From assembly GCA_034387635.1 (NCBI GenBank), contig JAOANU010000002.1, positions 1,736,001-1,800,000 of the forward strand: DNA of 64,000 nucleotides, in the 5' to 3' direction. This document shows, in pieces, positions 37,474-56,700 of the stretch (position 1 is its first letter; each line of letters opens with the position of its first letter). A program made the position numbers and the translations under genes. The stretch is from Rhodosporidiobolus odoratus. Taxonomy: Eukaryota; Basidiomycota; Microbotryomycetes; Sporidiobolales; Sporidiobolaceae. The notes under the pieces were generated by a model. The model ran no database searches and was not told the DNA's origin. It saw only the letters and a program-made list of their open reading frames with translations.

Positions 37474-37697
37474 TGTGTAGCCGCACACGGGCCGGACAAG
37501 GAAAGGAGCTTCTAATGTTAGCTATAGTTGCAGAATGAAACCTGTAAAGATGAACATGCCTGGACAAGGAAAGGAGCTTTTAAGACACCCCGATCCTTGC
37601 CCAACTACGAAAGACTAGAAAAGAGAGTACCAACTCAAACCTGATCAAATACGACTAGAATAACGAGTGGGGCAAAGTGGGGGAAGACGACATTGCC
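37474..37697 (-). repeat. LTR-like relic, diverged copy of 46864-47070
   Basis: Shares a scattered but colinear similarity with 46864-47070, including GGACAAGGAAAGGAGC-type and ACATGCCTGGAC segments and a common GTGGGGGAAGAC end. The 46864-47070 copy directly follows a Ty1/copia RNase H fragment, so both are interpreted as relics of its long terminal repeat. Confidence 0.5.
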
Positions 37698-37861
37698 TCT
37701 CTCTCTCTCTTTGACACTATGTACACCAGACAGAAGGTTTTGCTGGCTGAGTAGGGCAAGCACATATCTTGCTAGTTTTGGAGTGTGTGACTTGGCTACA
37801 CACACACCCATACCTGGACTAGGGTACAAGCTCTTGGCTGCTGCTTTGAGTGGGTCATGTA

Positions 37862-38854
37862 CAGTAGATACCCTCTACAAGAAGGCTCCCTATTCTATTG
37901 GAAGCAATTTTGCTGTCTCCCGCCTCCGTTCTATGGTGGAGGGGAAGCAAGAAGCGCCGCTATGAGGAAAAAGCCCACTTGAACAGGTCAAATTTCTAAT
38001 ACTGAGAATACATATATTACACCCTCACTGTTGAGCACCCCTGTGTTCCTCAATAGCAGTTGTCAGACGCTTCTGGTGCCTGTGGCCTTTCTTTTTGCCC
38101 ACAAGCCTGATCGGGTTGGATTCCGGGAGAGGGCAACCTCCTGAGCTTGACTTGTTGGCCGGTTGTGTTCCCTCGCTGTCTCTCTCCCGTTGTCTTGACA
38201 GCTATGAGTGTCCTTGCCTTGCTTGTCCTTGACAGGATTGAGGGGGACGGCGACCCGATCGTCACGGCTACTGCCCTTTCAGAGGACTCTGAGGCGATCA
38301 AAACCCTTCGCACCGCCTGCTGCTTGCTCGCCATTGGGAGGACAGACCACAAGGAGATGTTCATTGACCTTGCTGGACCCAGATGCTCGCATCCAGAGCT
38401 GGAGAGGGAGGAGAGGGAGGAGGATGTCCTCAACGAGATGGAGGAGTGGATGGGTGCTTAGACAAAAGCCTTTCCGCGGTTTTTTTCTTGACTCTGCTCT
38501 CTGTACACATGCTTGAAGGCTTGCAAGCATTGTACCTCATCTTGCTTCTCTGTCAGAGGACGAGAGTAGTCTGATCAAAAAAAAGTCAAACGCTCGGATT
38601 TGAACCCTCGACCTTAAGTTTCCGGCCTTTTCAGCTTCGCACCTTGGCTGGCTGGATGCAGGGAAGTTTGGCCTTTTCAACTTTGACCTCTGTTTGCTCG
38701 CTTCACAGAGTAGCTGTGACCGAGGTAAGAAGAGTCTATAATGTATCAGAACAGTGGCTACAATATGGTATAGGTCAACCAACAGAAGAAATGCTCATCT
38801 ATAAGAAGCAAGAACCTGATCTCCCAATGTGTTTCTCATAGAGGGACTCTTCTG
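37862..38854 (+). mobile_element. Non-autonomous pogo-like DNA element, about 1 kb
   Basis: Begins CAGTAGATACCCTCTACAAG and ends with the inverted complement of CAGAAGAGTCCCTCTATGAG; both ends are flanked by TA (37860-37861 and 38855-38856), the target duplication of Tc1/mariner/pogo elements. The interior has a 104-codon frame (38147-38461) whose end (EDSEAIKTLRTACCLLAIG, REEDVLNEMEEWM) recalls the acidic C-terminal tails of pogo/Tigger transposases, but the catalytic domain is missing. A related tail plus the same type of end lies at 54172-54722. Interpretation as a deletion derivative is inference. Confidence 0.6.
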
Positions 38855-40419
38855 TAGACTCTCAGCCAAAACTACATACAGCCAACTGCACTCACCCCAT
38901 GGAAAAGGTTCATCAAGGCAATCAGAAATCTGCCTGATGTGCACGGGCTCAGCCTGACACATGCATTTTGTCGCTGTACAAGTGTCTGGCAGGGCATGCT
39001 GCAATTGCTGTAGGTAGGTAGGCAAAGATTTAGTGAAGTTGGCTGACCTTCTCGAACTGGCTGATAGATCGAGTCAAGGTTCCATGGTTGAAACACCTGG
39101 ACAGCATGTGTTTGCTGGGTCGGCAGTCAGGTAGCACATTGCAGCATGTGGTTCATTGAGGTGACATTCTCCATGAAAATACGTGACTGGCAAGTGCAAG
39201 GGGCAGGCAGGACCCCTGCTTGACTCCTTGATGTTCCTTCAAGAAGCCATGTCTCAATACCTTTCAAGACAGCCCAGCATCTCTGCAGTGAGGCTGTCAG
39301 GTACAGGTTGATATGGCCAGCAGGGAAACAGGCATGAGCCAGTGTGGGAAGCGTACATTCCGGGGTGCAGGTGTCGCCAGCAAAAGTTGATGACCACGCT
39401 GGGGCTCGAACCCAGAATCTCCTGATTTTTACTTAATGCACAACTGCACTTCGTAGTCAGACGCCTTGCCATTGGGCCACGCAGCCTCCGATGATGGCCG
39501 CCCAAACAATAACGTACATAATCCTAAACCTACAAACGGAGGCCCAGAGTCAGACAGGCTGCCAAGTCCATCTTGGTGGATGTCAAGCACAGCTATACCT
39601 CACTCTGCTTCTGTCACAGGACAGGCAACTTAACGCTTTCGGGTAACGTAACATGCTACCAATGTACTTGTGGAGATGTCAAGGATTCACAGCCTGTATT
39701 AAGCCTTATATCACACCCAGGATTTTATATGAGGAAGATGCTGATGTGCTTGTCTCTTCTTTCCCAGTCACTTGTGTTATATCCTTTGCAGCTGTGAGGC
39801 ATACCCACAGTGTGCAACTGCAGTGTTCTCTTCTCATGGTCTTTCACACACTAAACAAGAAAGCCTCAAAGATAGTTGGCAGGGGGGTTGCATGGCCAAT
39901 AGTGTGTCAGGCAGACAATTCAGCTTAACAAGAGTGTGCACAGGACTGAACCAGGGTGGCTACTTACCTGGCAGGCATTCTCATTCAGCAAGAGCATAGG
40001 GGATAAAGCTGAGCTAGGGTTGCACTCAGGTCCCATACTCACATCAGTCAACATCTGAAGTCCTTGCCTCTGCACAACCACCCCCCCTGTAGAACTCCAA
40101 TGACACCCCCATGCCCTAATACGGAAGTGTAGCACAACTTTGTCACCAGAGAAACGTAAGGGAGCAATCTCATGCAGTCAGAAACCCGGGGTAATGGACA
40201 GGGGCAATGCAGATGGGCACAAGGAACCCAGTGGCTGTGCAACTATGCGATCGGGCATGGTAGCCATTCATCCTGTTTCAGAGCTGTCTGAGTAAGGTAA
40301 AACTCAGTGCCCATATGGAGACTGGATTGGTTGCACAATCTAGGGCCACCTCAGATATGGACAACACAACAACAAACCTAGCGCAGAGTTTCTCTACTCT
40401 CTGTGCACAGAATCGTGAG
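38739..40419 (-). repeat. Repeat copy A (about 1.6 kb), carrying tRNA-Arg; left arm of an inverted pair
   Basis: Inverted copy of 43397-44487 (copy B) over 38739-39834 and of the interrupted copy C (47700-48398 plus 53392-54171) over about 38920-40419. Similarity to both is near-identical by eye. Its low-coordinate end overlaps the end of the pogo-like element at 37862-38854, and its high-coordinate end runs into copia-like sequence. Several small frames recur in all copies, but they have no recognisable product and are not called as genes. The copy includes the tRNA at 39391-39486. Confidence 0.85.
39391..39486 (-). tRNA. tRNA-Arg(ACG) with 24-base intron, inside repeat copy A
   Basis: Cloverleaf read on the minus strand from 39486: acceptor GGCTGCG pairs with CGTGGTC using three wobble pairs; D arm GCC/GGC with a GG in its loop; anticodon stem TCTGA/TCAGG; loop CTACGAA with anticodon ACG; an intron after the anticodon; T arm CTGGG TTCGAGC CCCAG; discriminator A. 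A box (TGGCCCAATGG) and B box (GGTTCGAGCCC) are present, and a TTTT follows six bases after the end. The weakened acceptor stem suggests a relic or a repeat-borne copy rather than the main housekeeping gene. Confidence 0.75.
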
Positions 40420-40860
40420 TGGTGGAAAGGACTCTGCTAGCTAAGACCTGAGTTGACCTTCTCAACTTGGCCATACAGTCTGCTCACAGTGGCAGAGCAG
40501 CAAGAGATAAGCTAAACATTTTCTGCAGGGCATCAGACCAAAGGCTGCAATATGTATAGGCTAGCCTCTGCAAGAATGTGATTGCAAGAAGCAAGAATGT
40601 AATCACACAAACTATTTCTTGGCAAGGATATGTACAGGGGACTTGTTAATTCTGGCTGCAGTTTCACTATGGTTGGCCCAATTTCCTTGTCCAGTAAAGA
40701 ACAGGGTACCTGTACGGATTCAAGCAGCAACACTGAAGCAACAATCCACAGGTTCCAGATGCATTTATTCCGAGACCGTGGTGTGAAAGTGCTGATCGCA
40801 GGTGCTTGCAAAGGTGAGGCCCGGGCCACTCATTACAGCAATAACACACTTACATGTCCT
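40420..40860. other. Transposon-island DNA, no intact gene
   Basis: About 440 bp between repeat copy A and the COPB2 fragment. A plus-strand frame at 40630-40878 has RGLVNSGCSFTMVG, faintly like a retroviral-type protease active site (D/N-S-G), but it is too short to call. Confidence 0.3.
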
Positions 40861-41179
40861 CTCCTCCCCCGGCAATGACAATCCATCATGGTCACCACCT
40901 GCTCACTTGCTCACTTGATCATCATACTACGCTTACACAACAGCGCAAGCTCCTCACCCGCTGTGCACGAGTAAAGGCTGTCAACATACATCTCAAGGAA
41001 CCATGTGTGTGTTCTTCACCTTGCCTCTGCTCTGTTGTCTTGTATTGAGTGCTAACCCTCAGCTTTCACCAATGCAGGGCTCATGTAGGCTTTCCTTCCT
41101 TTTTTGAACATCACCTCGTGCCAAGAACAAGCGGCCAGGATGTCACCCCTGTGAATCAGGGTGTGCCCCACAGCTAGAG
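40861..41179 (+). pseudogene. Duplicated 5' fragment of the beta'-COP gene
   Basis: Nearly identical to 60510-60775 of the COPB2 gene: it includes coding exon 2 (40944-41004), the whole following intron, the 7-base exon GGCTCAT (41078-41084) and about 95 bases of the next intron. About six substitutions are visible in 240 bp. It lacks the first exon and everything downstream, so it cannot make beta'-COP. Retention of introns shows DNA-level duplication, not retroposition. It sits between the arms of the inverted repeat in the transposon island. Confidence 0.88.
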
Positions 41180-43396
41180 CAGAAGGTAGTTACAGACATG
41201 TCATGTAGTTGCTACTCAATCCTGAGTATGTGGCATAGAGGGAAAGACTCGCTTGTTGGCGTGAGCAGATGCCAGAATGTGCTTTTCTGGCATTGAGTCT
41301 CCATAACTCTGAGTCTTTTTCGCTTTGTTGTCTCAGTACCACTCCTTGATCTATCCCCATTGGTATCATCATTTGCCGATCAACAAGCAAATGCCAAAAG
41401 TGGCGTTACAATCAACTTTGTATATGAGATTGGCTTTGTAGCAAAATCGTGCCTTCTTTTCTTCTTTAACATATTACACCGCATCTTGTAGCGATATGAA
41501 GCCTCGCTAGAGGCAAGAGAGCACAAAGTGTGAACGGTGAATGGTATAGCAGTCAACTAAGAAAGAACTACTTACCTAGAGGCGAGAGAGAACAAAGTGT
41601 CAACGGTGAAGAAGAGAAAGGAAAGAAAGGAAGACGAGGTTATATAGGGAAGTGTAAGTAGCGCGACAAACTGTCTCACAATCCTCCCAGGCACAAAGGT
41701 GACAATGACGAAGGAGCGATAGGAACAACTAGGGAAAGGTAGAGACCAACCAAAGAAGTGAAGGAGAATAAGAACTGAAGCTAAGCGAAGCAAGAAAGAG
41801 GGAAGAAAGAATTATTCCTCCAACTTGACCTGCCCAAACCAAACATCAACTCCTCCTCAAGTCTTCCGCCCACTCTGAACTACTCTCACAACCAACACAT
41901 CTTCTCCTGGTGTATGTACTGCACCCTGTTCACTATCTGTTCTTTGCCTTTGTGCAAGAGCTACCAACCTCAAGCTCGAGGCGAAGTCGATAGTCGAGCG
42001 GAGAGATGGGGTGTAGGTCGATACGTGCTCTAGCTTCCCGCCACGAAAGCAATCAACAGTGATTCGAGCTTAATATTCGACCGAGAGATCCCAAGATGTA
42101 GCGGTGAGCTTCAACTACAGAAGTACTGAAGCCCAAGTCGACATCCCGATCACTCAACATTCCTCCTGACCTGAGAAGGTCCGACTGCAGGCTGCAAGGT
42201 CACGGATGTGAGCGCAGGACTGTAGAGGAATGAGATGAAGGAGAACATCGCAAAGGAAATAGACTTAGCTCTTGGGGGAGTTAAGTCGTGCTCGTCGATC
42301 GAGACGTAGCACTTTGCCCTCCACAGCAGACCAGATCTGTCCCTCAGGTCCTCCCGCAAGCGAGATGTCTCTGTTACCCCGGTCAAAGACAATGGTACGT
42401 CTTGCAGCAATGTGTAGGTAGTGTGACTCATCTCTCTCTCCCTCGTTGTTGTGGCTGTGCTCCACTGTGGCATATGGTCTCCTCAACCGCTGTTTCTATC
42501 CTGCAATGATCTATCCTTATGTTATTGGTTGCCAGGATTACCATCCTATCTAGTGCAACCCATGCGTCCAGCAAGGGGGTTGTGCTGGTGCTGTGTTTGA
42601 CATGAGCACAAGTTGTTTGAGACATGTCAACGCGCAAAAACTCCGCTTCTTTCCTCCCGTCAGCTCATGAGTGATAGGCAGTTCTGGCATACCAAGCTAC
42701 CCCAGTGTGTCAGAAATTGTCTGCCAGTGTCAATGCCATGCCAGTGCAACTCCCTTGTGTTAAGTGTTGGTTCTTCATATTATCCTTTCCTTTCATGTCC
42801 TTCCACTCAGTACAGGTCTGTGCCGTACTGCCTCACTGCAGTCTATAACTGCTTGTCAGCTGCTTGACTGAGTGGTGCAATTCAGATGGAGTCATGGACA
42901 ATCAAGGTGACCTGCAAGAGTGTTTTCTCTTCTTCCACTTTTCTTTTGTCCTGACAAGTGATGCCACTTCACTCCCTGTCGTCCTTAGCAAGGCTTGACA
43001 TTGTCAACTGAGCCCATGCCCCTCAATGTGGTCGATGTTGGTGGACTCTGTATTGGTCATGTCATTGTGACAAAGTGCTTCTGAGACACAGCACAGCAGG
43101 AGTTGGGCTGACCTTGAGAGCTTGCAAAAATCAGATCAGCCATGCCAGAAAGGACTCATTCTGTGGTCCTTGGGTATCTGGGTTCTGGGTACGAGAAGGT
43201 CATGCATGTTCATTTCCACACTCCTCTGCTCGCAGCAAACCCTCCTGCCACTTGACATGATGCTTAGGCGGTACACACTCTCATGACTGGCACAGAAATA
43301 TGTAGGATACAAGCAGAGCGTCCCAAGCTGTTGACTTTCTCAAGCATGAGCCTGCTTGAGGCATTGCTGCCGGTCTCACTACTATCGCGCAAAAGA
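41180..43396. other. Transposon-island DNA, no intact gene
   Basis: About 2.2 kb with short frames only. A near repeat of some 31 bases occurs at about 41510 and again at about 41580 (GAGAGAACAAAGTGT-type core). A minus-strand frame around 42150-42490 has no domain I can name. I see nothing else that can be supported. Confidence 0.35.
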
Positions 43397-44487
43397 CAAC
43401 AAGAAGAGAACACTGCAGTTGCACACTGTGGGTATGCCTCACAGCTGCAAAGGATATAACACAAGTGACTGGGAAAGAAGAGACAAGCACATCAGCATCT
43501 TCCTCATATAAAATCCTGGGTGTGATATAAGGCTTAATACAGGCTGTGAATCCTTGACATCTCCACAAGTACATTGGTAGCATGTTACGTTACCCGAAAG
43601 CGTTAAGTTGCCTGTCCTGTGACAGAAGCAGAGTGAGGTATAGCTGTGCTTGACATCCACCAAGATGGACTTGGCAGCCTGTCTGACTCTGGGCCTCCGT
43701 TTGTAGGTTTAGGATTATGTACGTTATTGTTTGGGCGGCCATCATCGGAGGCTGCGTGGCCCAATCAAGGCGTCTGACTACGAAGTGCAGTTGTGCATTA
43801 AGTAAAAATCAGGAGATTCTGGGTTCGAGCCCCAGCGTGGTCATCAACTTTTGCTGGCGACACCTGCACCCCGGAATGTACGCTTCCCACACTGGCTCAT
43901 GCCTGTTTCCCTGCTGGCCATATCAACCTGTACCTGACAGCCTCACTGCAGAGATGCTGGGCTGTCTTGAAAGGTATTGAGACATGGCTTCTTGAAGGAA
44001 CATCAAGGAGTCAAGCAGGGGTCCTGCCTGCCCCTTGCACTTGCCAGTCACGTATTTTCATGGAGAATGTCACCTCAATGAACCACATGCTGCAATGTGC
44101 TACCTGACTGCCGACCCAGCAAACACATGCTGTCCAGGTGTTTCAACCATGGAACCTTGACTCGATCTATCAGCCAGTTCGAGAAGGTCAGCCAACTTCA
44201 CTAAATCTTTGCCTACCTACCTACAGCAATTGCAGCATGCCCTGCCAGACACTTGTACAGCGACAAAATGCATGTGTCAGGCTGAGCCCGTGCACATCAG
44301 GCAGATTTCTGATTGCCTTGATGAACCTTTTCCATGGGGTGAGTGCCGTTGGCTGTATGTAGTTTTGGCTGAGAGTCTACAGAAGAGTCCCTCTATGAGA
44401 AACACATTGGGAGATCAGGTTCTTGCTTCTTATAGATGAGCATTTCTTACGTTAGTTGACCTATACCATATTGTAGCTACTGTTCTA
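43397..44487 (+). repeat. Repeat copy B, right arm of the inverted pair
   Basis: Inverted copy of 38739-39834, with arms of about 1.09 kb separated by about 3.56 kb. Similarity to copy A ends near 43397 on the left, and near 44487 on the right after the sequence that corresponds to the end of the pogo-like element. It carries a damaged tRNA-Arg copy at 43750-43843. Confidence 0.85.
43750..43843 (+). pseudogene. Damaged tRNA-Arg(ACG) copy in repeat B
   Basis: Same sequence as the tRNA at 39391-39486 except that two G are missing from the D loop (CCCAATCAAGG instead of CCCAATGGCAAGG). Those are the G18-G19 pair that contact the T loop, and the loss also spoils the A box, so this copy is probably not functional. 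Confidence 0.7.
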
Positions 44488-46863
44488 GGCAAGGACACAT
44501 AGCTACACCTACAGTCACTCCGGCTGGATCTCCACTGTCCCTGACCTCCTGTTCCCAGTGTCTCCACAGAACCCGTCTCATACCTCAAGGTCCGTATCTC
44601 AGGAGTCAAGGATGAAAAGGGTTACGGTTGGTGACCACCAGCCCAGACAGTTCGCTTGGCCGGACACACCACTGACGCTCCCATTTTTGGCGGGGAAAGG
44701 GTGTCTGTGTCCTGTATCTGTATTCTCAGCCTCTGAGTCAAGGTTTGCCAGCGCTCCCTGTCTGGTTCTGGCGTTGGATAAAGGTAGATACAGGGTCAAA
44801 GTACGGTATTTGCGCCGTGGATCAACGCTATGTTTCCCTAGACGGTCCTCAGAGCATGGGAACTGGACGGCCATCTCAGATCCGTCACAGCCATTCATTA
44901 TCCTCTAGACTCTCCCTTTGCAGGTGTTTGGCTCGGGTATACGTGTCTTGATGTACATATACCTGCTGGAGGTCATCTTTAACCGCCAGACAGGCTCTAA
45001 TTGACAATCAAAGCTTTTTTATTTTATTTCTATTCTTCTCCCTCTCTTGCTTCACACTCATAGAGAAGATCAGCCGCGCCACGGGGTCAGTGTTATACCC
45101 ATAGAAGCTCAAAAAAGCCTGCACAAGCCAGACAGCTGTTGTTCAAGGCTCTGTCCGGGCCACTTCATTGTGCTGGGGCCAGCGACGTCAATCAGTCGGG
45201 AGGCTGCGGAACCAGCAAGGATGGTAGCTTTGCTTGAGTAGCAAGGAGCAAGGGCAAAGGTAACAGTGAAGAAACCTTTATTGCTGAACGCTAAAGAAGA
45301 AGAGAGGAAGGAGATCCGCTACGGAAGCATCGATCCATCACTCAGCATTCCTCCTCAGAATCTACCCATGACCGACAACGGTAGAGTAGGGTGGTGTGAT
45401 CTGTACAAGTAGATAGACAGTACAGGGTTCTCAGAGGAATGTGGAAGAGAGGGAGCGAGGGAAAAAGAACTTAAGACATCGGGGGGTATTATGTTATAGA
45501 TAGCAAATGCTAGCATATTGTTTGCTTGTAGACACGGTTTTTTCATCCCAACTTTTGTCCCTTCTCACCACTCTGTTGTCTCTGAGGCTCCACATCGATA
45601 AAGATGGATCCATAGCCATCAAACATTAACTTGCCGTCTTTGCTCATGCTGTAGCAATGCAGGGAAAAGCAGAAAGTGGCCAGGACACGGCATGTCCAGA
45701 ATAGTGGTTCCCAGCTGTACTTCTGTGACAAATCATGACCTCTGGCTCCCAGACCTTCAGGTCCTGTTATACCACCTTCTGGATCAGCTGAGCACGGAGT
45801 TCCTGCGCTTCGGAGCGAGCATGCAGGGAGAAAGGAGGGTTCTGTGAAATCCCACTCTGTTCCCATAACCCCGAGCCAGCACAGCTGATTACAGCACCAT
45901 TGTGAGAAGCTGTCAGGCTCCGCACCTACCATAGAAAATGTTCCAACACACTCCCCTAGCTGGAGAAGCCATCCATGCTGTTGGCTGGGTGGGAAAAAGG
46001 ATGGGATGTCTTCGGAAGGTTGCCCATAGGGACCAACACTTGGCTCGATGCTGCAACGGTCGACAAGGGTATCAAGTGTATTGCTGGTTCGTTCTCCGGC
46101 AAGCGTGAGCGTGAAGAGAAGAACCAAAATGCGCCGTGCTCATCCTTCAACATCTGTCCATGTCTCATCTTGTTGCCTCCTATATCCTTGACCTTGAGTG
46201 AAGCCTGTAGCCTTACAGTCTTTTACCTCTTGCCAGACTTCTGACATGTCTTGTTGCCTTCTCCTCTTTTGTCCCCTGCTCGCTCCCTGCTAATCTCAAC
46301 AAAGTGCTAAAGCGCTATAGCTAGCCTTTCCCAGATCTCTCTCCCCCGTTGTTATACATTCTTGCTTTCTTTTCCTTGTCCTTCTCCAACTTACATACAA
46401 GCAGAATTATCACAAGGCTCTCTTGGATACTCCTTCTCACTATCTTGCTTTGACATGCCCTGGTGTAGAGGCTCTACTCTGGTCAGAGACTCCACAATAG
46501 CAAGTGTTTGTGCAGATCCACCTGGATGTGCAGGAGGCGGCTACACAGATCTGACAGTGTCAAGCCTTGGTGAGACTAGTGACAGGGAGCTTGTGTTTCC
46601 GCTAGCTGTATGAACTAAGCCCTGTAACAGAGGGAAAGGGAACTTGGGAGACTGGAAGATAATAATGTTGTGGCCTCATTAGCTCAATCGCACAAGGGAT
46701 GAAAGGCCAATACACTATTGTAGCAGGCAATTTTTCTTGGCGTGAGGGTCTCTAGTTGTACTTGAGAGAAGTGACAGACCATGGCAGGCAGTCTGAATCA
46801 GCAGCTGTGAGGGAAAGTCAAGCCAGCTTCCAACTTGAGTTTCCCGACTCCTTCCTTCACCCA
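44488..46863. other. Transposon-island DNA, no supportable gene
   Basis: About 2.4 kb. The longest frame is 194 codons on the minus strand (45543-46127); its product is rich in Cys, Gly, Ser and Trp and matches no family I know. It may be chance or a decayed mobile-element gene. No tRNA, terminal repeat or host gene was recognised. Confidence 0.35.
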
Positions 46864-47070
46864 GCTGTGGCCGCGGACGGGTCTGGACAAGGATAGGAGC
46901 CCTTCATGTCAGCTGTGTTGCAATCTAATCCTGTAACGAGGGACATGCCTGGACTAGGGTAGGAGCCACTAAAGAACCCCAATCCTCGCTTGGCTACTGA
47001 TGACTATAGAAGAGAATAACAACTCTAATCATCACAAAAGGAAATAGATGTGGGGGAAGACAACACTGCC
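46864..47070 (-). repeat. Probable copia LTR relic
   Basis: Lies directly downstream (on the minus strand) of the copia RNase H fragment, after a purine-rich stretch (GGAGGGAGAAAGAG) that could be a polypurine tract. It then reads TGTTGTCTTCCCCCACATC inward. A diverged partner occurs at 37474-37697. Confidence 0.55.
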
Positions 47071-47795
47071 AACTCTTTCTCCCTCCAGCACTCCCGCTCA
47101 GCTAGACTGCCACCACTCCCAGTACCCTCTGGTGCTTCTCAAATGTCTCCCTCGGTACCACCTTTGTCAAGATGTCGGCCGTATTTGCGCTACTCGGAAC
47201 GTACTCGAGGAGGCAGGCGTCGGAGAGGACTTGTTCTCAAGCGTAAAGGTGAGCGACTGCTATGTGTTTGGTTGCCTCGGTCCTGGCGCCGTGGAGAATG
47301 GTGGAGATGGTGCCCTGGTTGTCAGAGTGAACCACAGCTGTGGGGATGATATAGCCCAGCGCCTGAAGGAAGGTGGTCGTGAGTTCAGATAGTGGCACGA
47401 GCGGTGGACAATAGGGTGACGTTTTTGGCGTGTAGAGTAGATGTACTGCCAGTCTTCTGCTTCTTGCTAGCGCAGATCACTGTCGAGCCAAAGACCTTCA
47501 CCAAGAATCCCTCGTCGATCTTCTGTCCAAGCGGTCTCCTGCAAAGTCAGGGCCGGTCCACGCCTCGACAATGGTTGGGTGGTCAGAGGCGGAGCAACCA
47601 ATGACGATCCGTACGTTTTTGTCCCTTGAGATAACGTAGGACGTGGTTTGCGACGGTGAAGTGCTCATTGGAAGGGTTGGCAGAAGATTGACCGAGTAGA
47701 GGGTAGAGAGTAGAGAAACTCTGCGCTAGGTTTGTTGTTGTGTTGTCCATATCTGAGGTGGCCCTAGATTGTGCAACCAATCCAGTCTCCATATG
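47071..47795 (-). pseudogene. Degenerate Ty1/copia RNase H fragment
   Basis: On the minus strand one can read NLAQSFSTLYPLLGQSSANP, HVLRYLKGQKRT, then DFAGDRLDRRSTRD, LGYIIPTAVVHSDNQGTIST, ARTEATKHIAVAHL and LLEYVPSSANTADILTKVVP. These are the RNase H and C-terminal segments of copia polyproteins in correct order, but with in-frame stops and frame shifts. The reverse transcriptase, integrase and protease upstream were not found; the fragment runs into repeat copy C. It cannot encode a working enzyme. Confidence 0.8.
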
Positions 47796-48398
47796 GGCAC
47801 TGAGTTTTACCTTACTCAGACAGCTCTGAAACAGGATGAATGGCTACCATGCCCGATCGCATAGTTGCACAGCCACTGGGTTCCTTGTGCCCATCTGCAT
47901 TGCCCCTGTCCATTACCCCGGGTTTCTGACTGCATGAGATTGCTCCCTTACGTTTCTCTGGTGACAAAGTTGTGCTACACTTCCGTATTAGGGCATGGGG
48001 GTGTCATTGGAGTTCTACAGGGGGGGTGGTTGTGCAGAGGCAAGGACTTCAGATGTTGACTGATGTGAGTATGGGACCTGAGTGCAACCCTAGCTCAGCT
48101 TTATCCCCTATGCTCTTGCTGAATGAGAATGCCTGCCAGGTAAGTAGCCACCCTGGTTCAGTCCTGTACACACTCTTGTTAAGCTGAATTGTCTGCCTGA
48201 CACACTATTGGCCATGCAACCCCCCTGCCAACTATCTTTGAGGCTTTCTTGTTTAGTGTGTGAAAGACCATGAGAAGAGAACACTGCAGTTGCACACTGT
48301 GGGTATGCCTCACAGCTGCAAAGGATATAACACAAGTGACTGGGAAAGAAGAGACAGGCACGTCAGCATCTTCCTCATATAAAATCCTGGGTGTGATG
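47700..48398 (+). repeat. Repeat copy C, left part, interrupted by the mariner-like element
   Basis: Inverted match to 39,710-40,419 of copy A. It stops exactly at the left end of the mariner-like transposon, and the remainder resumes at 53392. Undisturbed copies read GTGTGATATAAGGC at this point; here GTGTGA is followed by TG (a mutated TA) and the transposon. Confidence 0.88.
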
Positions 48399-48632
48399 CA
48401 GTGCTTTTCAGAAAGCTGGGCCGCGCCAGCTCGACCACTTTCTCAAAATCGGACATCGGGTCGCTCAATTCTCCTTTGTAGTGATCCGGACCGCTTGCAA
48501 TGAGTTCCTAGTATATACTTGCGCGGGTCTAGTCACAACATACGCTTGAAAGAAGCCGAGGACGAGGAGATGTCGTCGACTACCTCCTCCCGCCTCTCTC
48601 GCTTCTCCCGCTCATTCCTCATGCCTACTGCC
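48399..48632 (+). repeat. Left terminal inverted repeat, contains promoter and transposase start
   Basis: About 234 bp matching the inverse complement of 53157-53389. It includes a TATA-like GTATATACTT at 48511-48520, about 50 bases before the transposase ATG at 48570. The first 21 transposase codons lie inside the repeat. Confidence 0.9.
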
Positions 48633-49776
48633 TACCACATACACAAGCGTCAAGACTGCATTCGCCTGCTAGAACAACTAGGCGACACCAACACCGTTGC
48701 ACAGCTTCTCGACATCCACCCCAGAACCGCTCGGAAATGGCGAGCCCCACTGGAGTCTACCGGCAGCCTCGACAACCGTTACTACCGGTGTGGCCGCACG
48801 CGCAGCCTGTCAGCACTCGAACATGCCCGTATCATCGAGCTGGTAGAGGAAAGGCGGGACGTGTACCTCTTTGAACTCGTCGAGAAGCTCCTCGAGGAGA
48901 ACATCAACACCAGCATCTCCACCGCCTGGCGGGAGCTTGATCGGGCCGAGTATACTCGCAAGCTGCTGCACAAGCTCGCTGCAGAGCGCAACAAGGAGGA
49001 TAGGGAGGATTTCGTGGAAACAGTCCGGCGCTATGTGGATCCTGCCAAAGTCTTCTACATCGACGAGATGGGTAAGGAAGACGACAATCTGTATCGGAGG
49101 TGGGGATGGGGACCAAGGGGCGAGCCAGCCGTTTTGACCGAGTCCTGGGCTCGCTCTGCCAAGTCCACCCTCGTCGGCGCCCTCGGCCTTGACGGAATGA
49201 AAGCTGTCAAGGTCGTTCCGGGTGCTTTGAACTCGTCTTCTTTCTATGATTTCCTGATGGAAGACCTAGTGAGCCAGCCCTGCCATTGCTTTCCTGCCTA
49301 GCTACTGATACGGCTTACCTTTGTCCCCTTCTCCCATTTCCTCGATCCCTTGTGTGATTCCGCAGCTACCCTTCATCCCCTCCGACTCGGTTCTCATCGC
49401 GGATAATTGTCGGATCCATCACCACACCATGATTCGCCCAGCTGTCGAGAGTTTTGGTTAGTCTCCCGTCCCTTCCATCTTCCCTCTCCCTGTTCACATT
49501 TCTTTCCCCTAGGTTGCGCTCTGTTATTCCTGCCTCCGTACTCTCCTGACATGAACGCCATCGAGGGGGCTTTTGCCCTCAGTTCGCTCCTCTCTGTCTT
49601 CCTGCCGCCTTACACTGAATTGACCTTTTCTCCTTTACACAGTGCGGAAGTACATGAAGAAACACCACAACACATACACCGGCATGGCCGGCGCTGAAAT
49701 TTTCCTCGACGTGGGGATGTGGGTTGGTCAGCGAGCTGCTCGTGGTCTCGTTCGGTACTGCGGGTGGAACTTGTAA
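48570..49776 (+). CDS. DDE transposase of Tc1/mariner (IS630) type, four exons
   Basis: Cuts and pastes the element. Exons 48570-49268, 49366-49456, 49513-49581 and 49643-49776 join in frame to 330 residues. The N-terminal region has a helix-turn-helix (DCIRLLEQLGDTNTVAQLLD followed by RTARKW) and a second helical DNA-binding part with SALEHARIIELVEERRDVYL. The catalytic core has FYIDEMGKEDDNLYRRWGWG (first Asp), VLIADNCRIHHH (second Asp) and LFLPPYSPDMNAIEGAF (Glu). The sequence then continues across an intron into MRKYMKKHHNTYTG and ends YCGWNL. All three catalytic residues and all splice sites look intact, so the enzyme may be active. The TA target and DDE spacing support the Tc1/mariner assignment. 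Confidence 0.9.
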
Positions 49777-49888
49777 GGTCAGGTTTTCTTCTAGCTTAAT
49801 CGCTGAGGCTGTTGTATGACACTATATCTGTGTTGCAAGGATGTGGGGGAAGGGAACAAAAGCGAGTTGGAGAAGAAACAGGCACAAG

Positions 49889-52800
49889 TCATACACTGTC
49901 CGGCTCAAGCGATCCGTCCTTGACCTTCTGCACGTGTGCTTTGAGTGCACGCCCGAGCGGCTTCCACTGCCCGCTCTGCCCATCTGTCAATGCCAAAAAC
50001 TGCGCTTTCCCCTCGTCATCGAAATTGTCCTCTTCGGCATACTCAGTCCCCAACTGCATCCCCATCTTCCACATCGTGAACGCCGTCGACTCGTTGAGAA
50101 GGTAGGCCTGGGCAAAGCGGCGAAAGCGCGGGGGGACTTGAGAGGCGGCGGTAGAAGTGGTGGCGGTAGAAGAAGAGGGACCGGTGGCGGAAGCAGAACG
50201 ACGGCGGCGAGACGTGGCGCGGGCGGGCGAGTCACGGTCACTTAGCGAAAGCTCGATCTCGTCGTCCTCCTCGTCATCCGCATCCGTGTCGACCTTGCGA
50301 CGCTTCACACCGTGGTCCTTCCCTTTGCCCTTCTCCTTCTTCCCCTTACCCTTGGCCTTTTTTTTAGCGGGTTGTGTCGGCTTCAAAAGCGGCGGACCCC
50401 CTTACCCTCGTCCTCGTTCTCGTCCGAATCCTCCTTCGTGCTGCTCGAGCTGAGGTCCGCCCTTAGGGCACGGGGCGCCTTCTTGATCTCCTTTGCCCTT
50501 TTTGCACCGACGGCGGTGGCGGGGGAGAACAGGTGATGGTTGGGAGGAGTCGTATTGTTCGGAGTTGGGGACTTCTTCTCGACGGCGTCCACCTGTGGTG
50601 AACGTGTGGTCAGCGTGAGGGCAAGGGGGAAAAAAGGATGAAGCGCACAATCTTCTTTGCCAAGAACCTCGCACGATCATGCTCGAGCAGGTTGTAACAC
50701 CTACCTTCCCAAGGGAAGCAAGCACTTTCTTCGTGACCCTCCTCCACGCAGGTGTCGACAGAGTAGAGATCCAGGAGTTGTTCAACTTTCGACGCGACCT
50801 GATTTTGACAGTCTTGTCAATTGGCAAGACAGACAGCGAGTGCAGTAAGCGAGGCGTACCGCATCATTGTCGATAGATCCATTGCCTTTTGTTGCCGAGA
50901 GGTTTTGCTTTCCGGTCGCAGAAGCTTTGGACGAGACGGAAGCGGGCTGTAGAAGGAGAGCAAAGCCGAAATAGTCAGTCATTGAATCCAGCTAGTTATA
51001 TAATCCTGTCGCGACGAGGAAAGGTAAGAGACTAGCCTGGGCGAGCATTGCAGGTCGCTGGATCTGGAAAACAAAGTTGCGAGGGTTCGGTCTCTTAGAC
51101 TCTTTGAGGAGGTCGGACTCGAAACCAGCAAAGTCGTGCTCGTCGACAAGAGTGGTGAACGTCTTGCCCGTGGTGTTTGAGCTTGCAGATGCGACCGCGA
51201 GATAGGTGAGGGTGCCGAAGTCAAGGCGATCTTGCTGAAGTCCGGCGAATTCCGCGAGGAGGGTCTTGAGCGAGTCGAGCGAGCAATTGCGACGGAACGC
51301 ACAGGTGCCCTTGGCGCGTTTGGGCTTGGAGTTTGGGTGTGTGTACTCGACGTAAAGGAAGAATTTATGGGATGCCGCCTTAGCCTCCGAGGCGTCGATG
51401 CTGGCGGCTTTTTCGACCTGCTTCTGCCTCGCTTTGGCCCGAGCTTTGCCCTTCACCGTCGTAGTGGAGTCTTCGCTTGGGTCGCTGCCGAGAAGGTTGT
51501 AGCCATCGTTTGAGGTCGGGTCAAAAGTGTCTGCGGACTGGAGTCAATCAACGCGGAACAGAGGTAGTGAGGCAGAGATGGCCCACCCTTAGCCTGTGAG
51601 CTGCTGCACTTCCTCTTGGGTTTCACAACCGGGTTCTCCTTAAGCTCGTTGACCCTTTCCGGGCTCGAAGGAGCGGGCATGGTTACAACGTCGTCATTGT
51701 CGGCGTGAATCTCGATCGGCATGTTGCCCGAGGTTGACGGGGCAGCTGGCGCACAGGGGACCCTCCCCTTGGGCCTGGCTGGCGTAGTGACCGAGCGACG
51801 GCGAGGAGGGGCGGGTTTGGGAGGAGGGGCAGCGGCAGAGGCGGACTTCGAGGAAGATTGGGTGCGGGAGTCGGTATAGTCGCAATCGGTGCTGAGGTGG
51901 GTTGACTTGCGGCTACGGCGTGGAGCAAGTGGAGCGAGTTCTTTTACCTCGTTGGTGGCAGGGTGCTCGCTGTCGGAGGGGAACAGATTGACCGCCTTTC
52001 CGCCGGACTGCCTCCCGCCGCTCTTCTTCCTCGACGCGGATCCGCCACGCTCCTTCTCCTTATCCAACTCATTCTCCTTGTTCCAGCTAAGGCGGCTCAC
52101 AGTCAAGCCGAAGGCGACACTCTTGCGGCGGACTTGCTCGGCCTGGTCGAGCAATATCCTCCGGTCTTGAGCTATACAGAGGCGAGACAAGCGGGGAACG
52201 AGAACCTCGAGGAAGAAGCTGGCGCGGGTGCGGCCAGAAACAATGCTGCTGACGCAGGTCTTGTTGTGTTCCGGATTAATCGAGTAAAATTCTTGGAGGA
52301 CGTCCATGAACACGCGACCGCCGACGTCGCCGTGACTGCAGAACAGACAAATGTGACCGATGTCATCAGAGCCTGTTGCAGAGCATAATGGAAAGCAAAG
52401 AGAGTACTTACTAGCCAGGAAAGATGGAGTCGGTGTACCCGAGAAAAGCGTTGGCCTTGTCCTTGGCCGACTTCGACTTGCCTTCCTCGTGATGGGTCTT
52501 GAGGTCGATATACTTCTCGTCCTGAGAAGGGTCCTCGACGAGCGGCTTGAGCTGCAGGGCGAGTTTGCGGGCTTGTCTGAGCACAGGCAAGGTAGAGATG
52601 TCAGCAACAGAAGAGAATGGCCGGGGAAGGGATAGGAGGACGAACTCTTCGAGCTCGTCTGGCACAATCTCACGAGGATAGCCTGCCTTCAAACCTTTTG
52701 GGATGTGCTTGAAGAACCCCTTGTGAGTGGCGCAAAAGGCGGCAGTCTTTGAGATGGGGAGGTGCAAGTGGAGCTTGTTGCGAATGTGGGGTTGGGGTAT

Positions 52801-53138
52801 GGCCTCCGGGTCATCACAGATGTCCTTGTAGGTCTGTTGCAGGTCGGGAGGGAGGGCGGCCAGGTTGAGGCGGTCGTCGCATAGCGCACAACAAGACCCG
52901 ACCTCGCCTAGGCACAAAAGTCAGCGAGCGCGTAGCAGACGAATGGGAGGAGCGTACCACGCCAGATAGAGGGCTTGAGAAGAGGATCTTCCGCGTCAGA
53001 ACGCGCCCTAGCTTCCGCTGCGGCCGCCGCTTCCGCCTCTTCATCCGCCTGATCCCTCGCTGCCTGTTTAGTCGCCCAGCGGTCGAAAAGGCTGACGTAA
53101 GTGGCTCCAGCGGTTGATGCAGTGGACTCGACTTCCAT
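49889..53138 (-). CDS. Transposon-borne protein with RTC4-like domain, multi-exon
   Basis: Companion gene of the transposon. ATG at 53136-53138 opens MEVESTASTAGATYVSLF. After an intron comes an RTC4-like domain: Cys-rich GSCCALCDDRLNLAALPPDL, HLPISKTAAFCATHKGFFKH, GYPREIVPDELEE, KLALQLKPLVEDP, DSIFPGY and then HGDVGGRVFMDVL, and ASFFLEVLVPRLSRLCIAQD. Long charged low-complexity stretches with NLS-like runs follow, then a second ordered region (HKFFLYVEYTHPNSKPKRAK, SLKTLLAEFAGLQQ), another helical part (VKIRSRRKLNNSWISTLST) and a final exon (RFRRFAQAYLLNESTAFTMW) ending EPDSV. RTC4 in yeast is a nuclear protein of unclear biochemistry; DNA or chromatin binding here is inference. Between exons near 50383-50410 the frame shifts by one base at a G run, so the last part may be lost or mis-sequenced. 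One gene is assumed; two adjacent genes are possible. Confidence 0.75.
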
Positions 53139-53147
53139 AGCGAGCAA

Positions 53148-53219
53148 TCAACTGGGGGCAGTAGGCATGAGGGATGAGCGGGAGAAGCGAGAGAGGCGGG
53201 AGGAGGTAGTCGACGACAT
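53148..53219 (-). other. Upstream ORF in the right inverted repeat
   Basis: The right terminal repeat mirrors the transposase start, giving an ATG at 53217-53219 that opens MSSTTSSRLSRFSRSSLMP and ends at a TGA (53148-53150), nine bases before the ATG of the RTC4-like gene. If transcription starts near the TATA-like site at 53271-53280, this is a 23-codon upstream ORF in that gene's leader. Confidence 0.7.
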
Positions 53220-53389
53220 CTCCTCGTCCTCGGCTTCTTTCAAGCGTGTGTTGTGACGAGACCCGCGCAAGTATATACTAGGAATTCATTGCAAGCGGTC
53301 CGGATCACTACAAAGGAGAATTGAGTCACCCGATGTCTGATTTGAGAAAGTGGTCGAGCCGGCGCGGCCCAGCTTTCTGAAAAGCACTG
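53157..53389 (-). repeat. Right terminal inverted repeat
   Basis: About 233 bp, the inverse complement of 48399-48632 with roughly nine differences. Contains the mirrored TATA-like AAGTATATAC site (53269-53280) and serves as promoter/leader of the RTC4-like gene. Confidence 0.9.
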
Positions 53390-53391
53390 TA

Positions 53392-54171
53392 TAAGGCTTA
53401 ATACAGGCTGTGAATCCTTGACATCTCCACAAGTACATTGGTAGCATGTTACGTTACCCGAAAGCGTTAAGTTGCCTGTCCTGTGACAGAAGCAGAGTGA
53501 GGTATAGCTGTGCTTGACATCCACCAAGATGGACTTGGCAGCCTGTCTGACTCTGGGCCTCCGTTTGTAGGTTTAGGATTATGTACGTTATTGTTTGGGC
53601 GGCCATCATCGGAGGCTGCGTGGCCCAATGGCAAGGCGTCTGACTACGAAGTGCAGTTGTGCATTAAGTAAAAATCAGGAGATTCTGGGTTCGAGCCCCA
53701 GCGTGGTCATCAACTTTTGCTGGCGACACCTGCACCCCGGAATGTACGCTTCCCACACTGGCTCATGCCTGTTTCCCTGCTGGCCATATCAACCTGTACC
53801 TGACAGCCTCACTGCAGAGATGCTGGGCTGTCTTGAAAGGTATTGAGACATGGCTTCTTGAAGGAACATCAAGGAGTCAAGCAGGGGTCCTGCCTGCCCC
53901 TTGCACTTGCCAGTCACGTATTTTCATGGAGAATGTCACCTCAATGAACCACATGCTGCAATGTGCTACCTGACTGCCGACCCAGCAAACACATGCTGTC
54001 CAGGTGTTTCAACCATGGAACCTTGACTCGATCTATCAGCCAGTTCGAGAAGGTCAGCCAACTTCACTAAATCTTTGCCTACCTACCTACAGCAATTGCA
54101 GCATGCCCTGCCAGACACTTGTACAGCGACAAAGTGCATGTGTCAGGCTGAGCCCGTGCACATCAGGCAGT
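53392..54171 (+). repeat. Repeat copy C, right part
   Basis: Continues copy C directly after the mariner-like element, matching the inverse of about 38,920-39,710. Similarity stops at 54171 (GCACATCAGGCAG), where pogo-like sequence begins. Includes the tRNA at 53614-53709. Confidence 0.88.
53614..53709 (+). tRNA. tRNA-Arg(ACG) with intron, inside repeat copy C
   Basis: Same sequence as the minus-strand tRNA at 39391-39486: 96 bases including a 24-base intron after the ACG anticodon, intact A and B boxes, D-loop GG present, and a TTTT run shortly after the 3' end. The acceptor stem contains three wobble pairs, so transcription may occur while aminoacylation is uncertain. Confidence 0.75.
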
Positions 54172-54722
54172 CAAAACCCTTCGCGCTGCCTGCCGCTTGC
54201 TTGAGATGAGGAGGACGGACTTTGAGGAGATATTCATTGACCTTGCTGGAGCTGTGTGCCAGCATCCGGAGCTGGACCAGGAGGAGAGGGACAAAGATGT
54301 CCTCAACAAGATGGAGGAGTGGATGGATGCTTAGACAAATCCTTTCCCCTTTTTTGACCTAGATTCTGCTCTTTGTACACATGCTTCATGCTTGAAGGCT
54401 TGCAAGCACTGTACCTCATCTTGCCTGTCTATTGAGGAAGAGAGTAGCCCGATGAAAAAAGTCGAGCACTAACCCTCTACCTTGAGTTTCCGACCTTCTC
54501 ACCTTTGCACCTTGACTGGCTGGACTCAGAGTAATTTGGCCTTCTCAACTTCAATCTCACTTTGCTCGCTTCACAGAGTAGCTATGGTCAAGGTGAAAGG
54601 ACTTCTCAAGGAATCAGAACAGTGGCTACAATATGCTATAGGTCAACCTCTGTAAGAAATGATTCTCTATAAGAAGCAAGAACCCCATCTCCCAATGTGT
54701 TTCTTATAGAGGGAATCTACTG
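54172..54722 (+). mobile_element. 3' fragment of a pogo-like DNA element
   Basis: Colinear with 38,300-38,854: the acidic tail RRTDFEEIFIDLAGAV and DVLNKMEEWMDA, then the same non-coding stretch, ending in the inverse complement of CAGTAGATTCCCTCTATAAG followed by TA (54723-54724). The 5' part is replaced by repeat copy C. A still weaker relic of the same non-coding stretch lies at about 55600-55740. Confidence 0.65.
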
Positions 54723-54724
54723 TA

Positions 54725-56700
54725 TGTATTTCCATCCCAGCACTGCCGTGCTTGTGATGTAGTTCATGAGACATGGCTGTGACGGAGTAGATAGACTGTA
54801 GTCTTGTGAAGAATGCAACCCGGCAACAAAGAGACTTGAAGCAAGAAGAGGTGAAAAAAGGAGATTGAATGTAAGGAAAGGAGCTCAACTTACCGGGTGT
54901 ATAGATAGGAATGTATTCCTACAACAAGGCTCAAAGTTAGACATGGGCTGCACACCAACAACTAGGAGCTTGTAGCCTGGTCTAGGAATGGGTACGGGTA
55001 CCTGTGAGGACATGTGGGGCTGTTCAACTCACGACACCAGCAGGTCCTATGCACATGGGTTGCCCCAAATGGACATCAACAGTGCATGAAGGATGCTCTG
55101 AGCGCGTTTGCAACATGTAACTTGCAAGTAACTTAACCTGCTGCATTAGCACATTGAGCGCAGGCATTACAGTACATACCCTGTATAAGAAGGCTCAAGA
55201 TGCAAAGGTTGGCCTACAAGAAGCAGCATCGGGGCCTCCCACCCACATCTTATGCTGTGAGGCACAAAGCACCACTATAATCAAAAAGTAGCTGATTCAG
55301 GCCAAAGTTAGTCATAACAGCATGGCATGCCAGCCCTTGAACGGGGCAACTTGATAGGCCAGAGCACCAGGGCAGCGTGAGATGTGTATGAGCAGCTCAG
55401 GGGTCGCATCTTGAGGCATTGCCAATATCACTGCTGTTTGTAGCTGTTTGTGCAAAGGCACAGCTGATTGATCTGAGGACATCTGAGTCCACTGCATGGT
55501 CTGGGAATACACCAGAGCAGACTTGTGCAACACAGAGAATGCTGTAGATTGCTCGCACACTACACATTGAGATCTGTGAGTATTGGGAAAGAGTTTTGCA
55601 GCCAACACCGGAGTTGGCCTTCTCAACTTGAACTTCCTTATGCTGGCTCCGCGGAGTAGCTACAATACAGGCAAACAAATTTCTCAAGGAATCCAAACAG
55701 TGGCTACAGGATGGTATACATCGACCCGCTGCACACACCTCGTTGTTGGTCACACCATGCGGACTTGACAGCTTCAGCGCTCTCCACCAAAGATTCAGCA
55801 ACTCACACACTACTAGCAATCACTTACGGATTGGTAGCCTGAAGAACCCAGATCAAGATGAGGCTGAACCCTGCGGGAAATGACCTTCCCAAACCTGCAA
55901 GCTGACCTTATGTGGGAGAGCTGCCAAGTACCGCTTGCCTCAGTAGACTGGTAGGAGTCTAGAGGGAAGGGTGAGCCTGAGGCGAGGTTTTACTGTAGTC
56001 TAGCAACACAAGGGAAGGTGGGAGATAGGAGCAGTTTGAGGGCAAAACCAGGTGAGTTTGTGCTGTGCTGTCTGCGCTCTCTGTAGAGATTCTTTGCTGC
56101 CGAACAACCAACAATCCTCGATAGTACATCGGTCAGTATATGACGCTTTCATCACTCTCTATTCAAGAGTGTGAAGCACCGTTAAGAGCCGGGTTCGATT
56201 CCCGGTCGGGGAAGGCCTTTTTGCCCCGCTGAAGCGCTTGTCTTGCAGCTGGCCCACCCACTGCTGGCATTTTGTGTTTTTGGCTCACACAGCACTCAAA
56301 CCCAGGTGAAATACGGTTGCTGCACTGCAAGCAGATAGCCCAATAAGTCAGGTTAATGCGGGCAGCCGAGACAATTGTGGCTGCACTTATAGTACAAGGA
56401 AGGGGAGCCACACCCTCCCACGACAAGAAGCAGTTTTATAACAGCCAAGTCAGATTTTCTGCGGTGTGGATTCTAAGGCAAGAGGTGACCTTCTCAGGTC
56501 GAAGAAGGTATGATATGACTCCTTGAAGCTGCACTTGACCATTCACGAACCAGCCACACCATACATAGTCGTACCAGGCCACCTACAGAACCGCAAGGAA
56601 AAGATAGCGATTAGTGTTAATACAGGGCTAATCCTCGTACTTGGACCTTAGTCGGAACAACATTGCCCTTCTCAGGTCCTCTCTGCCTGCTTCTTTGCGC
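54725..56700. other. Transposon-island DNA, no intact gene
   Basis: About 2 kb. It contains a pogo-like end similar to that at 37862 (ACCCTGTATAAGAAGGCTC near 55168), a weak pogo relic at 55600-55740, and a sequence at about 56188-56212 that resembles only the T arm and 3' acceptor half of a tRNA (GGGTTCGATTCCCGG). No complete gene is visible. Confidence 0.4.

What the first reader, a model, noticed from the sequence alone, without database searches (positions are those of the whole stretch)
48399..53389. Tc1/mariner-type transposon carrying an RTC4-like companion gene
The element is complete: 233-bp inverted repeats, TA target site, an apparently intact four-exon DDE transposase, and a second large gene of about 2.9 kb of spliced exons that contains an RTC4-like domain with extra ordered regions. 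Standard Tc1/mariner elements encode a transposase only. RTC4-like domains in fungi are poorly characterised; finding one as a structural part of a DNA transposon suggests it helps transposition, target choice, or silencing avoidance. I am not aware of a description of such a two-gene element.
Basis: partly seen in the sequence, partly recalled or inferred. Interest (0 to 1): 0.92.

Follow-up and report, generated by a model that had tools for sequence, protein, structure and literature searches.

The report
Two-gene Tc1/mariner transposons in a fungus
In this fungal genome the Tc1/mariner jumping genes found whole carry a second gene facing the transposase, in three of four an RTC4-type gene, and in most of them the near-identical element ends reach up to the starts of both genes, which suggests a co-made helper protein that I found no report of for fungal elements of this kind.

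Summary
The finding holds. Window 48399-53389 is a 4,991-bp element with 233/234-bp terminal inverted repeats (TIRs, 96%), a four-exon DD34E transposase (330 aa, DDE_3) and a convergent eight-exon second gene (944 aa) with an RTC4 domain above Pfam's cut-off. The plan recurs: all four loci in this genome with DDE_3 above cut-off are long-TIR elements with a convergent companion. Three companions have RTC4-like sequence; the fourth (C34, TIRs 251/251 identical, probably the youngest) has one without RTC4. A fifth transposase is cut off by a contig end. Seven short transposase-less elements match the ends of C34 (5, near-identical) or C6 (2) and lie at TA sites: recent mobility. In three of four elements the inner TIR edge lies within about 60 bp of both start codons, so the TIRs may give both genes one promoter, as in maize MuDR. 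A host-type RTC4 gene stands alone elsewhere. Best reading: a two-component fungal Tc1/mariner lineage with a co-expressed helper; the helper role is inferred. Multi-ORF Tc1/mariner elements are known in ciliates; none with RTC4, and none in fungi, turned up in my searches. Other fungal genomes could not be searched.

The parts
48399..48632 (+). left terminal inverted repeat; begins CAGTGC, contains TATATA at 48512-48517 and the first transposase ATG
53157..53389 (-). right terminal inverted repeat; TATATA at 53272-53277; inner edge 19 bp from the companion ATG
48570..49268 (+). transposase exon 1 (HTH region, first catalytic D)
49366..49456 (+). transposase exon 2 (second catalytic D)
49513..49581 (+). 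transposase exon 3 (catalytic E, 34 residues between it and the second D)
49643..49776 (+). transposase exon 4, stop at 49774-49776
52958..53138 (-). companion exon 1, ATG at 53138
52412..52907 (-). companion exon 2; CxxC...CxxH motif (52890-52723) and first part of the RTC4 match
51587..52335 (-). companion exon 3; rest of the RTC4 match (to about 52098), then a low-complexity linker
51016..51530 (-). companion exon 4; possible ordered middle domain 51414-51037 (low-confidence model)
50860..50946 (-). companion exon 5
50649..50798 (-). companion exon 6
50398..50592 (-). companion exon 7
49889..50350 (-). companion exon 8: basic linker and C-terminal helical domain (50152-49892), stop 49889-49891
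53390..53391 (.). TA at the right flank (left flank, 48397-48398, reads TG)

Best explanation
The window holds one member of a diverse family of two-component Tc1/mariner (ITm) transposons in this fungus. The DD34E transposase would cut and paste the element at TA sites. The second, convergent gene encodes a companion protein, in three of four members an RTC4-type domain with a zinc-finger-like CxxC...CxxH motif, plus linkers and a C-terminal helical domain. Each long TIR would serve both as transposase binding end and as promoter and leader for the gene next to it, so both proteins are made together. The companion most likely helps transposition, for instance by handling the broken or rejoined DNA ends or by recruiting chromatin or repair factors. 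Shown: anatomy, recurrence, TIR-gene geometry, matching short elements at TA sites. Inferred: promoter function, co-expression, and the helper role.
For: All four loci with a DDE_3 match above the Pfam cut-off (C2, C6, C34, C40; 7 candidates scored) are long-TIR elements with a convergent companion: TIRs 233/234 nt 96%, 109 nt 99%, 251 nt 100%, 174 nt 94%. Stop codons of the two genes are 112 (C2), 64 (C34) and 105 bp (C6) apart. In C2, C34 and C40 the inner TIR edge is within about 60 bp of both start codons. RTC4: C2 37.3 bits, C6 47.2 bits; C40 one exon match to the C2 companion (34%, E=4.3e-5) and, joined by eye, z=15.6 to C2 (0 of 500 shuffles). CxxC and CxxH are invariant in the four RTC4 sequences aligned. 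The helical C-terminus is shared by C6 and C40 (z=7.4) and weakly by C2 (z 2.8-3.0). Companion ORFs score as coding (C2 +180, C34 +66, all other frames negative). The transposase profile's only PDB match at E<=0.01 is Sleeping Beauty (2e-7). Seven short elements (5 C34-type, 382 bp, four of them 95-97% identical to the fifth; 2 C6-type, 443 bp) have both ends matching.
Against: C34 has no RTC4 match and its companion is not convincingly related to the others (C-terminus z -0.9 to 2.6, controls reach 2.1; middle domain z=4.5 to C6, 1.5 to C2). The RTC4 of C6 matches the host-type gene (z=20.2) far better than C2 (2.0) or C40 (-0.7), which leaves room for separate captures. The four elements do not form one group in the transposase tree, though well-supported branches do not exclude one origin. 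By eye C40 has a frame break in the transposase and its companion reads the second half of RTC4 out of frame; the last exon of the C6 transposase is unresolved and may hold a frame break. Each element was found once. My scoring of a C6 companion exon was set in a wrong frame (-51.7, one stop; best other frame +42.5), so it gives no support. No expression or activity data.
Confidence: 0.6

Rival explanations
1. Host-interaction gene: the companion does not act in transposition itself but counters host silencing or damage signalling, so the element survives. (Odds of the rivals may overlap with each other and with the best reading.)
For: In C2 and C34 the companion is larger than the transposase (944 against 330 aa, 416 against 321 aa); RTC4 parts are 20-29% identical to C2; C34 has no RTC4; yeast Rtc4 is found in cytosol and nucleus and linked genetically to telomere maintenance (PMC6162548, passages).
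Against: No direct evidence; the function of Rtc4 is called unclear.
Confidence: 0.2
2. Passenger: a host RTC4 gene captured between the ends, with no function for the element.
For: RTC4 in C2 and C6 is each close to the host-type gene at C8 (z=17.8 and 20.2); carried host genes are known in transposons (recalled).
Against: Same place and orientation in 4 of 4 elements whose transposases are 48, 33 and 26% identical to C2; C-terminal domain shared by C6 and C40 and not seen by eye in the C8 frames; start codons near the TIR edges on both sides in three of four; RTC4-free companion in C34.
Confidence: 0.12
3. Regulator: the companion represses or doses the transposase or the TIR promoters.
For: Basic linker and CxxC/CxxH motif would suit a DNA-binding protein; near-identical TIRs would give feedback on both genes.
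Against: No known DNA-binding domain found by Pfam; no expression data.
Confidence: 0.15

Closest known systems
Basidiomycete Tc1-mariner elements such as Pleurotus ostreatus TIR_1 (PMC4905642, passages)
   Same: DDE_3 transposase of the Tc1/mariner superfamily; non-autonomous copies present
   Different: TIR_1 is listed at 1.6 (column read as kb) and the passages name a transposase and no second gene; here 3.0-5.0 kb with a second convergent gene and TIRs of 109-251 bp
Multi-ORF ITm elements of ciliates (Paramecium ITm with ORF2, TEC, TBE; PMC5405496, passages)
   Same: ITm transposase plus extra ORFs inside one element
   Different: One extra ORF there is a tyrosine recombinase, ORF2 is of unknown function; DDE spacing 32 in 10 of the 13 Paramecium elements. 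Here an RTC4-type companion, DD34E, a fungus. ORF2 was not compared with the companion
Maize MuDR (PMC3440606, passages)
   Same: two convergently transcribed genes, transposase plus a protein of unknown function, about 215-bp TIRs that contain the gene promoters
   Different: different superfamily: here a DDE_3 transposase and TA sites; the second MuDR protein and the RTC4 companion were not compared
PIF/Harbinger and ISL2EU (PMC4482050, passages)
   Same: a second ORF next to the transposase is the rule
   Different: second ORF has Myb/SANT or YqaJ; TSD TWA or AT; other transposase
Fungal RTC4 (PF14474), host-type gene at G000:C8:415182-416152
   Same: RTC4 domain with CxxC...CxxH and GYYG (GYHG in C2)
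   Different: C8 has no inverted repeat of 30 nt or more and no transposase match below E=2 in the 9.9 kb fetched

Membership tests
IS630-Tc1-mariner superfamily | DDE_3-type transposase | tested here: met
   PF13358 86.2 bits, cut-off 28.6; only PDB profile match at E<=0.01 is Sleeping Beauty
IS630-Tc1-mariner superfamily | catalytic D, D, E with 34 residues between the last two | tested here: met
   D165, D246, E281 invariant in the four transposases aligned; 34 counted by hand for C2
IS630-Tc1-mariner superfamily | TA target duplication | tested here: met
   TA on both sides in C34, C6 and the seven short elements with both ends; for the window element itself TG/TA, one mismatch; C40 ends uncertain. 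No empty site seen
IS630-Tc1-mariner superfamily | N-terminal helix-turn-helix DNA-binding domain | tested here: inconclusive
   HTH_32, HTH_23, HTH_29, HTH_33 and HTH_Tnp_Tc3_2 hits, all below their cut-offs
RTC4 family (companion of C2 and C6) | PF14474 above gathering score | tested here: met
   37.3 and 47.2 bits, cut-off 23.7
RTC4 family (companion of C40) | PF14474 match | tested here: inconclusive
   no Pfam match for the joined piece, but it aligns to C2 and to the host-type RTC4 (z 15.6 and 11.3)
RTC4 family (companion of C34) | PF14474 match | tested here: not met
   no RTC4 match up to E=10
MuDR/MULE | MULE-type transposase, 9-bp target duplication (recalled) | tested here: not met
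   DDE_3 transposase, TA sites
MuDR-like working plan | TIRs hold the promoters of two convergent genes | not testable with these tools
   geometry fits in C2, C34, C40; no RNA data
PIF/Harbinger | Myb/SANT second protein, TWA duplication | tested here: not met
   no Myb/SANT in the Pfam scans of the companions; TA sites

The most novel reading that the evidence does not exclude
Fungi hold an undescribed, old group of two-component Tc1/mariner transposons in which a companion protein, usually built on RTC4, is needed for mobility, and spread of such elements accounts for the large RTC4 gene families reported in some fungi (for example 45 in one rust species and 15 in another, PMC9370660, passages).
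Probability: 0.33. Interest if true: 0.8.

Novelty: new variant of a known kind. Interest (0 to 1): 0.66.

Why it matters
Tc1/mariner elements are usually taken to need only their transposase. A recurring, co-organised second gene in a fungal lineage, with TIRs placed like twin promoters, suggests a helper requirement that can be tested in laboratory yeast. It also gives the poorly understood RTC4 family a concrete context (DNA ends, transposition) and offers a possible explanation for RTC4 expansions in some fungal genomes.

Tried and rejected
Companion homologues elsewhere: none at E<=1e-3 for C2 residues 1-340 and none at E<=0.01 for C6 residues 100-220; the database does hold fungal proteins (17 transposase relatives, several named fungi) but needs shared 5-residue words, so absence is weak evidence. 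Viral contigs: 58 loci encode transposase relatives; none of the 58 (all held) shows a match at E<=0.01 to the three companion queries, and in the 3 of 58 loci I searched for inverted repeats there was none of 40 nt or more; these are mostly not fungal, so a weak control. Structure: C-terminal domain, mean pLDDT 65.6, four helices, no PDB fold match at E<=0.001; middle domain, pLDDT 49.7, none; a SAM-like or ubiquitin-like nature remains an impression only. PDB by sequence for RTC4: one chance-level match, E=0.97. Idea that elements target tRNA genes: a tRNA lies about 225 bp right of the C2 element and one about 17 bp from the short element in L058; the other 12 of 14 sources searched gave no tRNA, so dropped. 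Two sub-threshold DDE_3 matches (C9, C4) read by eye as other DDE types and were not counted. Literature, all search listings: RTC4 with transposase 0 papers, 'RTC4-like domain' 0, PF14474 0; fungal Tc1/mariner with extra ORFs nothing matching in the titles and abstracts listed.
Full report
What is there. Short GT-AG introns and a best transposase match in Mycena, with others in Agrocybe and Suillus, suggest a basidiomycete; that is inference. The element spans 48399-53389. Its ends are inverted repeats of 233/234 bp, 96% alike, found nowhere else in the genome by DNA search. They start with CAGTG; right flank TA, left flank TG.

Gene 1. Exons 48570-49268, 49366-49456, 49513-49581, 49643-49776 give 330 aa without a stop. 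DDE_3 matches with 86.2 bits; D, D and E are invariant in the family alignment, the last two 34 residues apart (hand count). The profile of four transposases matches one PDB sequence at E<=0.01, Sleeping Beauty.

Gene 2. On the other strand, convergent, eight exons 53138-49889, 944 aa. RTC4 is matched at 37.3 bits, cut-off 23.7. Upstream of that match lies CxxC...CxxH, invariant in the four RTC4 sequences aligned. Codon log-odds with a model trained on five long ORFs outside the element are +180 in frame and negative in the other five frames. Introns 4 and 7 have weak sites. The stops of the two genes are 112 bp apart.

Other members in the genome. The transposase finds relatives on C40, C6, C34 and C12, the companion on C40 and C8, the RTC4 profile on C8, C6 and C2. 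Fetched regions show inverted repeats of 174 nt (94%) on C40, 109 nt (99%) on C6 and 251 nt (100%) on C34, each around both genes; C8 and C12 have none of 30 nt or more. All four loci whose DDE_3 score exceeds the cut-off are such elements; seven candidates were scored and two further matches lie below the cut-off and read as other DDE types. On C12 the transposase runs into the start of the contig, so a companion there cannot be judged. C8 has RTC4 without transposase or TIR and looks like the host gene.

Companions compared. RTC4 is above cut-off in C6 (47.2 bits), gave no match for the joined C40 piece, and is absent from C34. Shuffle tests (500 each): RTC4 C2-C40 z=15.6, C2-host 17.8, C40-host 11.3, C6-host 20.2, but C2-C6 2.0 and C40-C6 -0.7. 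C-terminal domain: C6-C40 7.4, C2-C40 3.0, C2-C6 2.8, C6-C34 2.6, C40-C34 -0.4, C2-C34 -0.9. Middle domain: C6-C34 4.5, C2-C6 1.6, C2-C34 1.5. Twelve cross controls gave z from -1.6 to 2.1, so values of 2 to 3 are weak. RTC4 and the helical C-terminus are thus shared by three companions with differing strength; the C34 companion is related at best weakly. Transposase identity to C2 is 48, 33 and 26% for C40, C6, C34.

State of the genes. C34: companion open over eight exons, log-odds +66 with all other frames negative; its transposase reads through with one GT-AG and one GC-AG intron. C40: by eye, frame break in the transposase and RTC4 partly out of frame. C6: last transposase exon unresolved; the one companion exon that I scored was put in a wrong frame (-51.7, one stop; best other frame +42.5), so that figure is void.

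TIR as promoter. In C34 the two 251-nt TIRs are identical and identity stops 37 and 34 bp before the two start codons; in C40 it ends at the companion ATG and 9 bp before the transposase ATG; in C2 it includes the first transposase ATG by 62 bp and ends 19 bp before the companion ATG; in C6 the transposase ATG is 150 bp inside and the companion start is not settled. A TATATA occurs at the same place in both C2 TIRs, TATAAA/CATAAA at the same place in the C40 TIRs; none was found inside the C6 and C34 TIRs. This resembles MuDR, where about 215-bp TIRs hold the promoters of two convergent genes (PMC3440606, passages). That the TIRs here act so is inference.

Mobility. Ends like those of C34 occur at six further places. 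Five are 382-bp units, four of them 95-97% identical to the fifth, all five with TTA/TAA at the edges, which means a TA site within TTAA, as in C34 itself; the sixth (L062) shows one end in the stretch fetched and is part of a longer unit of about 840 bp. Ends like those of C6 occur at four further places, two with both ends, 443 bp, TA sites. These short elements lack both genes, so they neither support nor refute the need for the companion.

Tree. With 14 of the 17 relatives (the three weakest dropped), C2 and C40 form a supported pair; C6 stands apart with weak support; C34, on a long branch, falls with weak support next to the mushroom transposases. The four do not form one group, but well-supported branches do not exclude one origin. 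Two-gene elements are thus old or arose more than once. Whether the mushroom relatives have companions could not be seen.

Known context. Paramecium ITm elements carry further ORFs, an ORF2 of unknown function in all 13, and TEC/TBE are cited there too (PMC5405496, passages). The Pleurotus Tc1-mariner family is described with a transposase, size listed as 1.6 (PMC4905642, passages). Extra ORFs are the rule in PIF/Harbinger and their role is stated as unknown (PMC4482050, passages). Rust genomes have many RTC4 proteins, 45 in Puccinia novopanici against 15 in P. sorghi, with no transposon link made in the passages I saw (PMC9370660). Yeast Rtc4 has an unclear function with genetic links to telomere maintenance (PMC6162548, passages).

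Verdict. Observation confirmed; interpretation supported in its main point, with RTC4 not being constant. A new variant of a known kind, with a testable helper hypothesis.

Noticed in passing
L057-L061 (G000 C10, C5, C2, C10, C20): Family of five 382-bp transposase-less elements, 95-97% identical to one another's reference copy, with C34-type ends, in all five at TTAA with TA duplicated; a related longer unit of about 840 bp lies at C10:484841-485682.
   Followed up: partly
window 36000-56000: A stretch mostly of lower GC (47-58% per 2 kb) than the rest, holding three tRNA genes of 94-96 nt, probably with introns (39391-39486 -, 43750-43843 +, 53614-53709 +), and the element.
   Followed up: no
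L026 4461-6153 (G000 C34): Companion gene of the element with identical TIRs, 416 aa, without any Pfam match above cut-off; possible weak kinship to the middle part of the C6 companion.
   Followed up: partly
L027 1-1000 (G000 C12 start): A fifth transposase of the family, cut off by the contig start.
   Followed up: partly
L035 (G000 C4:1352900-1353046): A pogo/Fot-like DDE protein by eye, unrelated to the two-gene elements.
   Followed up: no
L058 194-284: A tRNA gene ends about 17 bp from the start of one short C34-type element.
   Followed up: no
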